The notes under the pieces are model-generated. The model made no database searches. It was not told the origin of the DNA and saw only the letters and a list, made by a program, of their open reading frames with translations. This document shows, piece after piece, positions 17,112 to 20,675 of a stretch of DNA of 21,911 bases. How positions within the stretch are numbered: position 1 is the first letter of the stretch; each line of letters opens with the position of its first letter. The position numbers were made by a program, and so were the translations under genes. Source of the DNA: a virus; IMG/VR virus record IMGVR_UViG_3300029319_000584, positions 1 through 21,911 of that record. The stretch is one strand, 5' to 3'.

Positions 17112-17347
17112 TGCTTAGTGAATTTGATGAAAAGATGGTCTCGGTTTTGTTTTGTCTTACTGATCCTTCCGATCCTTGCAATATAGTTATATCGCTGGAT
17201 CAGGATGTAGATGTAGTAATACTAGAAACTAAAAGTGTTATACCTGTAGCGCACAAAATGTCGCTAGAGCAATTCCTTAATATGCCAGACCAAACAATTA
17301 AACAACTAGGTAAGGAGCTGCAAAGCTCTTTAAAAAAGGTGATTTAA
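17111..17347 (+). CDS. Small phage hypothetical protein (78 aa)
   Basis: Mixed strands in the first half (VSVLFCLTDPSDPCNIVISLDQDVDVVIL) and a helical second half (SLEQFLNMPDQTIKQLGKELQSSLKKV). No family recognised. It overlaps both neighbours by one base (TAATG), so it is translated as part of a coupled string. Confidence 0.68.
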   Translation: MLSEFDEKMVSVLFCLTDPSDPCNIVISLDQDVDVVILETKSVIPVAHKMSLEQFLNMPDQTIKQLGKELQSSLKKVI

Positions 17348-17571
17348 TGGCTGAAAGCAAAATAACTAAGGTTATGAAGGAGTTTAAATCTGGAGACTTA
17401 AAAACAGGCTCTGGCAAAAAAGTTACTAGCCCGAAGCAAGCTATGGCAATTGCTATTTCTGAACAGAAAGAAGCAAAGAAAATGGCAGAGGGCGGGATAA
17501 TTCCTGAACCTAAAACTGTTGCTCGTGGAAGCGGCGCAGCTCGAACTCAATACTTTAGGAAGAATGGATAA
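17347..17571 (+). CDS. DUF6496-like small basic protein
   Basis: 74 residues. KVMKEFKSGDLKTGSGKKVTSPKQAMAIAISE (about 8-39) matches the DUF6496 pattern, in which a short basic helix is followed by GKxVTSxKQAxAIALSE. The function is unknown, but these Lys-rich small proteins are common in phage structural regions. The C-terminal tail is Arg/Gly-rich (VARGSGAARTQYFRKNG). One-base overlaps with both neighbours indicate coupling. Confidence 0.7.
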   Translation: MAESKITKVMKEFKSGDLKTGSGKKVTSPKQAMAIAISEQKEAKKMAEGGIIPEPKTVARGSGAARTQYFRKNG

Positions 17572-18008
17572 TGGCGACAAGTGACGAAGAGGTAATGAAG
17601 AAAATATCTGAGGAAATGTCTCAGTATTATAATAAAAATTTTGCCAAGTTTGGGCCTATGGGAAAAATGGCTTCCGATAGTAATGCTGTAAAAGAAGATG
17701 CAGCAAGAGAAGGTACTGTTTTTGGCACTAAAGCAGGTGTTCTTGGATCTGGAATGGGATCTATTGCGGGGATGGGACAAGCTGCTGCACAAGCTGCGGC
17801 TGCGCAAGAAGACGCTATAGCTCTGGGTGCGGGAAATCGTCAAATGTCAGAAGCAGCAAGGCGGCAAGCTGTAATGGCGGAGCTTAATAAGCCTAGACCT
17901 GCTGGTATGGGCATGGGCAGGGGTATGCAAGGCATGAAAGGCGGCGGAAAGGTTTCTAAGTCAGGGCGATCATATCGCGGTTATGGCAAAGCTCGAATAC
18001 CTAGCTAA
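17571..18008 (+). CDS. Small Ala/Gly/Met-rich basic protein (145 aa)
   Basis: Three compositional zones: a charged helix (1-55), an Ala/Gln helix (AAAQAAAAQEDAI and neighbours, about 68-85), and a Gly/Met/Lys/Arg tail (GMGMGRGMQGMKGGGKVSKSGRSYRGYGKARIPS from about 112) that is flexible and positively charged. A membrane-active or DNA-binding role would fit such a tail, but no family is recognised. It is coupled to the DUF6496-like gene (TAATG) and overlaps the next gene by 26 nt. Confidence 0.68.
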   Translation: MATSDEEVMKKISEEMSQYYNKNFAKFGPMGKMASDSNAVKEDAAREGTVFGTKAGVLGSGMGSIAGMGQAAAQAAAAQEDAIALGAGNRQMSEAARRQAVMAELNKPRPAGMGMGRGMQGMKGGGKVSKSGRSYRGYGKARIPS

Positions 18009-18612
18009 CAGAACTAATAGTATACGGGAATATACTATTCGTAAGGAGATCAGGGAGTGGTCTTTTAATTGGCTAGAGGAGCCTGATGATCGTTATAACG
18101 GTATGTCCCCATGCCCGTATGCAAGACGCGCATGGAATGATGACAAGGTTTTTATAACGTTTAAACACCTTAAGAGTTATTGGCCTGTGTTTGATGTTTT
18201 AGAAAACTTCAATGATGACAAGGACTTAACTATTATTGCAGATACGCAGTATGAAGAAGAGCCTGAAGAGTTTCATCAAAGATTAGTTGGTATTAATCAC
18301 GGAATAGCTAATGGTGCATTTGGTGATAAAAATCTTTGGGTAATGGGTTTTCATCCAGATGATGAAGAGCATGAAGGAATGCTTGATTATGAAGACGATG
18401 CTCCTATTGAGTATGACACAAGCAGTCTTTTAATCCCGCCAGATGAAGAAGAAATATATGCAATGATATTTATCCAAAGGCTTGATAAGTTGCAGGAAGC
18501 TGCTTACAAGTTAAAACCTACTGGATATTATGAAGCTATGTTTAAAGATTCAGAGCCATCTCATATCTTTGAATTAAGAGAACAGTTTTATAAACAACTT
18601 AAGGAAAATTAA
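17983..18612 (+). CDS. Phage hypothetical protein (209 aa), acidic
   Basis: A soluble protein, basic at the N-terminus (residues 1-30) and strongly acidic from about 75 to 165 (EEEPEEF, DDEEHEG, PPDEEEIYAM). A Trp-rich part near 27-65 (EWSFNWLEEP, ARRAWNDD, KSYWPVFDVLEN) may form the folded core. I know no function. The start lies inside the previous gene without a good ribosome binding site, so coupling is likely and the exact start is uncertain. GTTTAAAC (18159-18166) codes Phe-Lys. Confidence 0.7.
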   Translation: MAKLEYLANRTNSIREYTIRKEIREWSFNWLEEPDDRYNGMSPCPYARRAWNDDKVFITFKHLKSYWPVFDVLENFNDDKDLTIIADTQYEEEPEEFHQRLVGINHGIANGAFGDKNLWVMGFHPDDEEHEGMLDYEDDAPIEYDTSSLLIPPDEEEIYAMIFIQRLDKLQEAAYKLKPTGYYEAMFKDSEPSHIFELREQFYKQLKEN

Positions 18613-18613
18613 G

Positions 18614-18748
18614 ATGCCCGGAAAGAAGCCAATGAAGAAAGTTGGAGTGAATAAGAAGAAGCGGCCCAAGGCTATGCGGGGCGGCAGAATGGTTGGCAAG
18701 CCAATGAAAAAGGTTGGGGTCAACAAGAAGAAACGACCCAAGAAGTAA
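18614..18748 (+). CDS. 44-residue Lys/Arg-rich protein with an internal 15-residue repeat
   Basis: ATG at 18614, 8 nt after AAGGA, stop TAA at 18746-18748. About half the residues are Lys or Arg and there is not one acidic residue. KPMKKVGVNKKKRPK occurs twice (residues 5-19 and 29-43), joined by AMRGGRMVG. The two DNA copies differ in 7 of 15 codons, every difference silent, which shows that the protein is under selection. It is almost certainly a nucleic-acid-binding or DNA-neutralising peptide, comparable in composition to protamine-like virion proteins, though that role is inference. It lies between structural genes, and the next gene also ends in a Lys/Ala tail. Confidence 0.8.
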   Translation: MPGKKPMKKVGVNKKKRPKAMRGGRMVGKPMKKVGVNKKKRPKK

Positions 18749-18760
18749 TTCGGAGGAATT

Positions 18761-18994
18761 ATGGCTGACAAACTAAAGGTAGTTGAAAATGGCTACAGCT
18801 TGCTTACAGGAGACCCTGTATATCAAATTGCAAATGCTGAAGACGAAGTTGTAGATGTTGGGCCTTATACAAAGAAGGAAGCAGATGCAGCGCTAAAGGC
18901 ATTGGCTCCTAAAAAAGCAGAACCTAAAAAAGAACCTGCTGCTAAAAAAGCTCCAGCTAAAAAAGCTTCAGCTAAAAAAACTGCGAAGAAGTAA
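18761..18994 (+). CDS. Small protein with histone-H1-like Lys/Ala/Pro tail
   Basis: 77 residues. Residues 1-48 form a small compact part (VVENGYSLLTGDPVYQIAN, VVDVGPYTKKEADAALKAL); 49-77 is a tail of KKA, KKE and AKK units (KKAPAKKASAKKTAKK) like the C-termini of histone H1 and some bacterial DNA-compacting proteins. GGAGG lies 4-5 nt before the ATG. Probably binds DNA or another polyanion in or near the virion. Low-complexity tails like this evolve fast, so homologues may differ in length. Confidence 0.8.
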   Translation: MADKLKVVENGYSLLTGDPVYQIANAEDEVVDVGPYTKKEADAALKALAPKKAEPKKEPAAKKAPAKKASAKKTAKK

Positions 18995-18997
18995 AGT

Positions 18998-19693
18998 ATG
19001 GCTACTAGCGGAACCTACACATTTAATTTAGATCTTGGAGATATAGTCGAAGAGTCGTTTGAGCGTGCTGGGTTAGAAGCAAAGAGTGGTTATGACTATA
19101 GAACTGCTAGGCGCAGCTTGGATTTATTATTTTTAGAATGGCAAAACAGAGGGTTAAACCTTTGGACTATTCAAGAAGGATCTCAAGCGATAACGTCTGG
19201 TACAGCTCGATATACCTTTAGCGGCGATGTTTTAGATATTGTTGAAGCGTTTATACGCACAGACTCAGGCGACACTAGTAAGCAGACAGACCAAATGCTT
19301 ACAAGAATATCTGTTAGTCAGTTTGCGCATTTAACAAATAAGCTGTCATCTTCCAAACCATTACAGTATTGGTTAGAAAAAGATCCAGCAGCTATATCTA
19401 TAAATCTTTGGCCTGTGCCTGATTCAAATCAAACGTATACGTTAATTTATTATTATCTTCAAAGAGTCGAGGATACTGGTAGTCCGGCAACTAACAATGT
19501 TGATATACCTGCTAGGTATTTGCCTTGTATGGTTGCTGGTCTTGCGTATCAAATAAGTCTTAAAAAGCCAGAGGTTGCAGACAGAATACCTGTGTTAAAG
19601 CAAGTGTATGAAGAGCAATGGTCATTGGCTGCTGATGCGGATCGTGATAAGTCATCTCTGTTTTTTACACCCGGAGGGTATAGAACAGTATGA
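18998..19693 (+). CDS. Head-tail connector (phage adaptor-like) protein
   Basis: 231 residues. The opening helix (LDLGDIVEESFERAGLEAKSGYDYRTARRSLDLLFLEWQNRGLNLWTIQ, about 9-58) is a hallmark I know from adaptor proteins of marine short-tailed phages, the P22 gp4-like group that extends the portal. The middle has strands (RYTFSGDVLDIVEAFIR, ISINLWPVPDSNQTYTLIYYYLQ), and the end PARYLPCMVAGLAYQISLKKPE is a helix pair. The next genes continue the connector or tail set. Its TGA overlaps the next ATG by 4 bases. Confidence 0.8.
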   Translation: MATSGTYTFNLDLGDIVEESFERAGLEAKSGYDYRTARRSLDLLFLEWQNRGLNLWTIQEGSQAITSGTARYTFSGDVLDIVEAFIRTDSGDTSKQTDQMLTRISVSQFAHLTNKLSSSKPLQYWLEKDPAAISINLWPVPDSNQTYTLIYYYLQRVEDTGSPATNNVDIPARYLPCMVAGLAYQISLKKPEVADRIPVLKQVYEEQWSLAADADRDKSSLFFTPGGYRTV

Positions 19694-20034
19694 GTATATA
19701 CGCTAGCGGTAAATATGCTTTTGGATATTGCGATATTACAGGCTTTAGATACAAGCTGAGTGATTTGGTTCCTCTAGTAAGGGATGGCAGAGATACTGGG
19801 CTTCGTGTTGGATATGATCAGCTTGATGTTGATAACCCGCAATACGAGCTTGGTCGCATGAGTATTTCAGATCCTCAAGCGTTAAGAAACCCAAGACCTC
19901 CTAAAGCATTGGCTGATTCAAGAAAAATGTTTGCGTTTGATCCTGTTGGTGGTGGCATAACTGAGCTAGGTAGCAGAACAGTTGGCTTAGATATACACGC
20001 TAAAGTTGGCAAAGTAACAGTGAGTACATCCTAA
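19690..20034 (+). CDS. Virion protein related to phage zinc-ribbon family, Cys ligands lost
   Basis: 114 residues. YASGKYAFGYCDITGFRYKLSDL (4-26) and LRVGYDQLDVDNPQYELGRMSISDPQALRNPRP (39-71) align in my memory with a phage virion family that reads CDRCGFRYKL and VCPxCxDxDHPQ in many members, with PQ(A/S)LRxPRP afterwards. In this copy only the first Cys remains, so zinc binding is unlikely. The function is unknown; it lies between two connector-type genes. ATG overlaps the previous stop by 4 bases and its stop overlaps the next start. Confidence 0.72.
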   Translation: MSIYASGKYAFGYCDITGFRYKLSDLVPLVRDGRDTGLRVGYDQLDVDNPQYELGRMSISDPQALRNPRPPKALADSRKMFAFDPVGGGITELGSRTVGLDIHAKVGKVTVSTS

Positions 20035-20675
20035 TGGCTTGGACATATACTACATTAACTCAGGCAATCAAGGACTATACAGAAAATACTGAGACAACCT
20101 TTAGCAATAACATTGCACGTTTTATTGTTTCAGCAGAAGAAACAATACTTAGAACAGTACAGCTTCCTAACTTTAGAAAGAATGTAACGGGTACGTTGAC
20201 AGCTAGCAGCCCTTATTTATCTACGCCATCAGACTTTTTGTTTCCTTATTCATTAGCAATTGATAACTCTGGCTATGAGTATTTAATATTTAAAGATGTT
20301 AATTATATGAGAGAGCTGTATCCAGTTGCTGCAACTACTGGTGTTCCTAAATACTACGCATTGTTTGATGACACAACGTTTATAGTTGGGCCTACGCCCG
20401 GATCAAACTACACAGCAGAGCTTCATTATTTTTATGAGCCTACTTCAATTACTACGTCTGGAGATGGAACAAGCTGGCTAGGAGATAATGCTGATAATGC
20501 GTTGTTGTATGGCTCTTTGGTTCAGGCTTATATATTTATGAAAGGCGAGCCAGATGTTGTTCAGCTTTATCAAAAGCAATTTGATGTTGCGTTAGGACAA
20601 TTAAAATTAGAAGCAGATGGTTATGATCGAACAGATGCCTATCGAACAGGGCAAATTAAAATGAGGACTAGCTGA
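20034..20675 (+). CDS. Second head-tail joining protein
   Basis: 213 residues. TLTQAIKDYTENTETTFSNNIARFIVSAEETILRTVQLPNFRKNV (about 7-51) and STPSDFLFPYSLAIDNSGYEYLIFKDVNYMRELYP (about 60-97) are familiar from marine-phage structural proteins at this place. A helical C-terminus (LLYGSLVQAYIFMKGEPDVVQLYQKQF) is followed by a polar tail. With the 231-residue protein it probably forms the neck. Coupled to both neighbours by overlaps (TAATG and TGATG). Confidence 0.78.
   Translation: MAWTYTTLTQAIKDYTENTETTFSNNIARFIVSAEETILRTVQLPNFRKNVTGTLTASSPYLSTPSDFLFPYSLAIDNSGYEYLIFKDVNYMRELYPVAATTGVPKYYALFDDTTFIVGPTPGSNYTAELHYFYEPTSITTSGDGTSWLGDNADNALLYGSLVQAYIFMKGEPDVVQLYQKQFDVALGQLKLEADGYDRTDAYRTGQIKMRTS

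What the first reader, a model, noticed from the sequence alone, without database searches (positions are those of the whole stretch)
18614..18748. Unmarked 44-residue Lys/Arg protein with a repeat kept at protein level
The 15-residue block KPMKKVGVNKKKRPK is present twice, and the two DNA copies differ in seven codons, all silent. Zero replacement changes against seven silent ones in one short gene is strong evidence for a real, constrained protein. Composition suggests a DNA-neutralising virion or early peptide, and automated gene finders would tend to miss it.
Basis: seen in the sequence. Interest (0 to 1): 0.72.

Follow-up and report, generated by a model that had tools for sequence, protein, structure and literature searches.

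The report
Basic repeat peptide paired with DUF1415-like gene
A tiny, strongly positively charged repeat protein in a marine phage is a real, selected gene, and in every related phage examined it sits directly behind one particular acidic protein of an uncharacterised, enzyme-like family, which points to an undescribed two-gene module.

Summary
The 44-aa ORF (18614-18748, +) exists. Its 15-residue block occurs twice, with seven codon differences, all silent (P about 1e-5 by chance). Six DNA alleles in close relatives give pN/pS 0.017. The gene is real.

That 209-aa acidic protein ("p209", net charge -22) and the basic peptide are an inseparable pair. All 30 viral loci found from a DNA motif of the peptide alone have p209 directly upstream. 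In all 21 p209 clusters (126 loci, down to ~30% identity), p209 is followed by a short basic peptide. These include phages HMO-2011 and CRP-810 (peptide unannotated) and CRP-345 (annotated gp77), where the surrounding genes differ. Only 12.5% of other short ORFs in these loci are that basic. Unit number and sequence vary; position, charge and repeat character do not.

p209 belongs to the DUF1415/DUF6875 superfamily (function unknown) and has an invariant Cys44 and His124. Its model resembles AglA, a heme-thiolate arginine N-hydroxylase. That link is suggestive only: a second model did not return AglA, and sequence evidence is at chance level.

Most likely this is a late phage polycation whose handling or modification depends on p209. 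Virion DNA neutralisation is plausible but untested.

The parts
18614..18748 (+). 44-aa polycationic tandem-repeat peptide gene (net +20)
   Evidence: conserved in relatives
18626..18670 (+). first copy of the 15-residue block KPMKKVGVNKKKRPK
18698..18742 (+). second copy of the block, seven silent codon differences
17983..18612 (+). p209: 209-aa acidic protein (net -22) of the DUF1415/DUF6875 superfamily, obligate upstream partner; invariant Cys44 and His124
   Evidence: (PHROG_28122)
18599..18605 (+). ribosome-binding-like AAGGA at about this place, inside the 3' end of p209, ahead of the 44-aa ORF (translational coupling likely)
   Evidence: sequence
18761..18994 (+). 77-aa gene with H1-like Lys/Ala/Pro tail; neighbour, absent in some relatives that keep p209 plus peptide
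18998..19693 (+). SU10-type tail adaptor gene, used as synteny anchor
   Evidence: PF24175, E 4.6e-11

Best explanation
The ORF is a genuine late phage gene for a short, probably disordered, polycationic tandem-repeat peptide. It is the second half of a two-gene module whose first half is p209, an acidic DUF1415-superfamily protein with an enzyme-like invariant Cys/His core. Shown: the gene is under strong purifying selection, unit number changes between relatives, and p209 and a basic peptide always occur together, also where the rest of the neighbourhood differs. Inferred: the two products act together. The most likely division of labour is that the peptide is a polycation that binds nucleic acid (or an acidic virion surface) during assembly, and p209 is the protein that binds it and either modifies it or keeps it soluble.
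For: Selection: 7 silent/0 replacement between copies and pN/pS 0.017, 0.080, 0.053, 0.244 in four ortholog groups; unit-versus-unit pS 0.65 against pN 0.106 over ten unit sets. Pairing: 30 of 30 loci found by a peptide DNA pattern without reference to p209 have p209 directly upstream. All 21 p209 clusters are followed by a basic peptide, 19 by script (121 of 126 loci) and 2 by inspection. Background of equally basic short ORFs is 12.5%, and 5.8% of all ORFs. The pair stays together in HMO-2011, CRP-345 and CRP-810, where flanking genes differ, and in a phage contig binned with an Oceanicoccus MAG. Copy-number change: L069 lacks one 16-aa unit that L070 has; L098 and L095 differ likewise. p209 superfamily: hhalign to DUF1415 E about 1e-6 and to DUF6875 2e-5, unrelated controls 0.18 or worse; Cys44, Pro45, His124, Pro125 invariant in 43 of 43.
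Against: No expression, binding or virion data exist. Many other small basic genes sit in the same genome region (DUF6496, H1-tail gene, others), so basicity alone is not special. HTVC027P and CRP-901 have no strongly basic gene between capsid and adaptor, so no such peptide is universally needed for this virion type. Cellular DUF1415 genes have no such peptide behind them (0 of 11). Some p209 relatives have a quite different basic protein behind them (KQGYNARLDESLG type in L155; Arg-rich ORF in CRP-810), so homology of all the peptides is not shown.
Confidence: 0.55

Rival explanations
1. Modification cassette: p209 is a heme-thiolate enzyme related to the AglA/YqcI-YcgG guanidine N-hydroxylases, and the repeat peptide is its multi-unit substrate, modified on Arg or Lys side chains.
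For: The idea was written down before the fold search; all five AglA entries then came out as the top five of 965 aligned chains (Z 6.8-7.2, rmsd 4.0-4.5, 146-156 residues aligned), next unrelated row Z 4.9. AglA uses Cys44 as heme ligand in a four-stranded sandwich (PMC12866846), and p209 has four strands in a helix-Cys-helix-strand order. hhalign puts p209 Cys44 on the invariant FPCVGAKSA Cys of YqcI and GFHP on GLHP. The peptide is multi-unit and gene-adjacent, as enzyme substrates of this kind often are. CRP-810 has a 2OG-Fe(II) oxygenase overlapping p209.
Against: Z under 8 can be a common arrangement. Foldseek itself gave no significant hit. A better model of a divergent homolog (L163, pLDDT 89.5) did not bring AglA into the list, best Z 4.4. 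p209-YqcI E 0.035 is no better than a chance pair (YqcI-capsid 0.003). Heme binding untested. CRP-810's oxygenase is not seen next to the other p209 genes.
Confidence: 0.18
2. Electrostatic chaperone: p209 only binds and masks the polycation until it is used; no chemistry.
For: p209 is the most acidic by net charge (-22) of the thirteen neighbouring proteins measured and the peptide the most basic (+20); one-base spacing suggests coupled, matched synthesis; relatives keep acidic p209 (-18, -19, -21, -25).
Against: The invariant residues are mostly Cys, His, Trp, Tyr and Pro rather than acidic patches, typical of an active or cofactor site; several other proteins of the window are acidic too.
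Confidence: 0.2
3. Virion DNA-neutralising peptide: protamine-like polycation packaged in the head; p209 merely co-transcribed.
For: Net +20 in 44 aa; late position between capsid and tail adaptor; small basic protamine-like proteins condense DNA in eukaryotic dsDNA viruses (PMC6163548, abstract).
Against: Tailed phages normally package naked DNA by motor (general knowledge); obligate pairing with p209 in 21 of 21 clusters and in different contexts is not explained by mere co-transcription.
Confidence: 0.25
4. Spurious ORF from a low-complexity AAG-rich stretch.
For: Low complexity; antisense frame also open.
Against: Selection figures, conserved start, ribosome site and position in 21 clusters.
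Confidence: 0.02

Closest known systems
CRP-345 gp77 and the unannotated ORF after HMO-2011 gp66
   Same: short Lys/Met/Gly-rich repeat peptide (net +17, +19) overlapping the 3' end of a p209 homolog
   Different: repeat motif is MKPRAM/MMRGG type rather than KKxGVxKKRP; p209 only about 30% identical; different flanking genes
DUF1415 (PF07209) and DUF6875 (PF21780)
   Same: p209 shares the CPFA/CPYA and HPD motifs and aligns over 137 and 103 columns
   Different: cellular members have no basic peptide behind them; p209 lacks the NRSPYP motif; the window protein itself does not reach Pfam significance
AglA and the YqcI/YcgG heme enzymes
   Same: overall fold resemblance of the p209 model and a conserved Cys in the same place by alignment
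   Different: no significant sequence relationship; no cofactor evidence; second model did not match
Protamine-like and core peptides of eukaryotic dsDNA viruses
   Same: size, charge, low complexity
   Different: phage context, paired with p209, no virion evidence, no sequence relationship tested

Membership tests
DUF1415 superfamily (p209) | profile similarity | tested here: met
   28 of 43 members hit PF07209 at E up to 1, best 2.8e-5; hhalign E 1.1e-6 and 7.8e-7, unrelated controls 0.18 or worse. The window protein on its own gave no Pfam hit.
DUF1415 superfamily (p209) | CPFA-type and HPD motifs | tested here: met
   C44-P45-[YF]-A47 and H124-P125, with D/E at 127, conserved in 43 of 43, aligned to CPFA and HPDY.
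DUF1415 superfamily (p209) | NRSPYP motif of cellular DUF1415 | tested here: not met
   p209 has Y159-A-M in that place. So p209 is filed as a relative (superfamily), not as a member of DUF1415 proper.
YqcI/YcgG heme-thiolate enzymes (p209) | sandwich fold of AglA | tested here: inconclusive
   Top five VIA rows, Z 6.8-7.2; not listed for the second model.
YqcI/YcgG heme-thiolate enzymes (p209) | PF08892 sequence profile | tested here: not met
   No PF08892 match in the window; hhalign E 0.035, within chance.
YqcI/YcgG heme-thiolate enzymes (p209) | heme bound by a conserved cysteine | not testable with these tools
   Only an aligned invariant Cys is shown.
Modified-peptide (RiPP-like) system | short precursor encoded beside its enzyme | tested here: inconclusive
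   Adjacency met; enzyme activity and peptide modification unknown.
Virion DNA-condensing peptide | presence in the virion and DNA binding | not testable with these tools
   No proteomics available; charge and late position only.
Known peptide families (Pfam, PHROGs) | match of the 44-aa peptide to a curated family | tested here: not met
   0 families for the window peptide in PHROGs and Pfam; the 84-aa relative gave only a sub-threshold Pfam hit (HTH_CodY, E 0.036).

The most novel reading that the evidence does not exclude
Marine phages carry a two-gene post-translational modification cassette: p209 is a small heme-thiolate (AglA-like) oxygenase that hydroxylates Arg or Lys side chains of a multi-unit polycationic peptide made from the next gene, giving a chemically altered nucleic-acid-binding peptide used in assembly or delivered to the host cell.
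Probability: 0.15. Interest if true: 0.88.

Novelty: new variant of a known kind. Interest (0 to 1): 0.57.

Why it matters
The pair occurs in 126 phage loci, mostly from metagenome contigs, and in HMO-2011, whose phage type is described as dominant and broadly distributed in the ocean (PMC9038755, abstract). One half has no annotation in two of three isolate genomes and the other is 'hypothetical'. The obligate pairing gives a functional handle on PHROG_28122 and on the phage branch of the DUF1415/DUF6875 superfamily, a family of unknown function with possible heme-enzyme relatives. If p209 acts on the peptide, a two-protein co-expression experiment could reveal the activity of a whole uncharacterised superfamily.

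Tried and rejected
tblastn of the 84-aa relative against phage records: no match, probably because BLAST's low-complexity filter removes it. DNA search of the region in phage records: none. PHROGs and Pfam scans of the peptide: no family. Rfam over 17900-19100: nothing. Antisense hydrophobic ORF as the real gene: rejected. Foldseek of both p209 models against PDB: nothing below E 0.001; second model's VIA list did not include AglA, so the fold claim is kept as suggestive. Viral structure library: the four matches below E 0.001 are unnamed or uncharacterised proteins. Literature: no paper on DUF1415 function; no virion proteomics of HMO-2011-type phages found; phiGT1 structural-gene paper has nothing on small basic proteins. 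A shared M[KR]xGG motif in all peptide types was considered and dropped: several clusters lack it and other basic genes of the region have similar motifs. Fetching genome relatives through a locus id failed and was replaced by a genome handle.

Full report
Observation. The 44-aa ORF at 18614-18748 (+) is present as described. It has net charge +20 and pI 12. The block KPMKKVGVNKKKRPK lies at 18626-18670 and 18698-18742, with seven codon differences, all silent. With 9 synonymous and 36 non-synonymous sites this has a neutral probability near 1e-5. Across the other readings of the two copies the number of residue differences is 8-9, except for the antisense register in which silent sites coincide; there only one residue differs inside the block. 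That antisense frame is open in most relatives but broken in L085 and L087, lacks an ATG and opposes the operon. The sense ORF starts one base after the stop of the upstream gene, behind an AAGGA site.

Relatives. IMG/VR loci were fetched with the 209-aa gene, the tail-adaptor gene, a peptide DNA pattern and an alignment of the 209-aa family. In close relatives the peptide is unchanged or carries one Lys-to-Arg change at its last residue, while the DNA differs by up to eight silent changes; pN/pS is 0.017 over six alleles. In more distant relatives the same position holds longer peptides with 2-4 units of the form KKxGVxKKRPxxMxGG, for example L087 with 84 aa. L069 and L070 differ by exactly one 16-aa unit. 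pN/pS in the other ortholog groups is 0.080, 0.244 and 0.053, and units within a protein differ at pS 0.65 and pN 0.106.

The partner. The gene just upstream, p209, is found with a basic peptide directly behind it in every cluster: 126 loci in 21 clusters, 121 loci by script and the L051 and L161 clusters by inspection; one further locus, in the L163 cluster, was not called by the script and was not resolved. In the reverse direction, all 30 loci found only by a peptide DNA pattern have p209 immediately upstream. Equally basic short ORFs make up 12.5% of the short ORFs of these loci. The loci are not all independent records: several come from the same contig or from near-identical contigs, which is why clusters are counted. 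The pair also stands together in Puniceispirillum phage HMO-2011 (gp66, then an unannotated 50-aa ORF of net +19), Roseobacter phage CRP-345 (gp78, gp77) and CRP-810 (gp20, then an unannotated Arg-rich ORF), where the surrounding genes are not those of the window, and in a phage contig binned with an Oceanicoccus MAG. Shared operon position alone therefore does not explain it. The peptides are not all alignable: window type, MKPRAM/MMRGG type and KQGYNARLDESLG type differ. Common descent of all of them is not shown; what is constant is charge, size class, low complexity and place.

What p209 is. It is PHROG_28122, function unknown. The window protein alone gives no Pfam hit, but 28 of 43 family members hit DUF1415 (best 2.8e-5) and 14 hit DUF6875. 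Profile comparison gives E 7.8e-7 with DUF1415 and 2.4e-5 with DUF6875, against 0.18 or worse for seven unrelated phage families. Cys44, Pro45, Ala47, Trp51, His124, Pro125, Tyr159 and Tyr183 are invariant in 43 of 43. The predicted structure (pLDDT 80.6) aligned best, among 965 chains, to all five AglA entries (Z 6.8-7.2), with the next unrelated chain at 4.9. AglA is a YqcI/YcgG heme-thiolate enzyme that N-hydroxylates arginine guanidine groups, heme held by Cys44 (PMC12866846). I had written this relationship down as an idea before the search. Profile alignment with YqcI proteins lays Cys44 on their invariant FPC cysteine and GFHP on their GLHP, but its E-value (0.035) is not better than chance, since YqcI against capsid scored 0.003. 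A second, more confident model of a divergent homolog did not bring AglA into the list. I regard the AglA link as a good lead and not as established.

Mechanism. Shown: selection on the peptide, variable unit number, obligate pairing, superfamily of the partner. Inferred: the peptide is a disordered polycation that binds nucleic acid or an acidic virion surface during late infection; p209 binds it and either modifies it or holds it. The invariant Cys/His/Trp/Tyr core of p209 favours chemistry or a cofactor over a purely electrostatic chaperone, but no test here decides. 'Early' function is disfavoured by the gene's place between capsid and adaptor genes. A virion role is open.

Novelty. The peptide matches no Pfam or PHROG family, and I found no paper describing the pair or the function of DUF1415. 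Small basic phage peptides, and enzyme genes beside a small substrate gene, are both known kinds of thing; this is an undescribed combination.

Noticed in passing
window 17571-18008; L063, L076, L087, L148 (ORF upstream of p209); L089:6629-6994 (HTVC023P gp53): The gene directly upstream of p209 in several lineages ends in a shared C-terminal motif RGYGxAR (RGYGKAR, RGYGAARKP, RGFGAART), also seen as RGSGAAR in the DUF6496 protein at 17347-17571; a possible common docking or processing signal of small late proteins.
   Followed up: no
window 17347-18994 and the same interval in L017-L087, L089, L090: The interval between the capsid-side genes and the SU10-type tail adaptor is a hotspot of unrelated small basic genes that are exchanged between relatives; CRP-901 and HTVC027P have no strongly basic gene there.
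   Followed up: partly
window 12725-13117: GroES-like co-chaperonin gene (Cpn10, E 4.7e-8) just ahead of the capsid gene cluster, also annotated in DSL-LC04, CRP-901 and HTVC027P.
   Followed up: no
window 18998-19693 and 20034-20675: Two neighbouring genes both match the SU10 adaptor family (PF24175, E 4.6e-11 and 1.3e-25), suggesting a duplicated adaptor.
   Followed up: no
L181:4435-5001: In Roseobacter phage CRP-810 a 2OG-Fe(II) oxygenase gene overlaps the start of the p209 homolog.
   Followed up: partly
L179:4503-4655 and L181:5485-5694: Unannotated basic ORFs in the HMO-2011 and CRP-810 records directly after the p209 homologs.
   Followed up: yes
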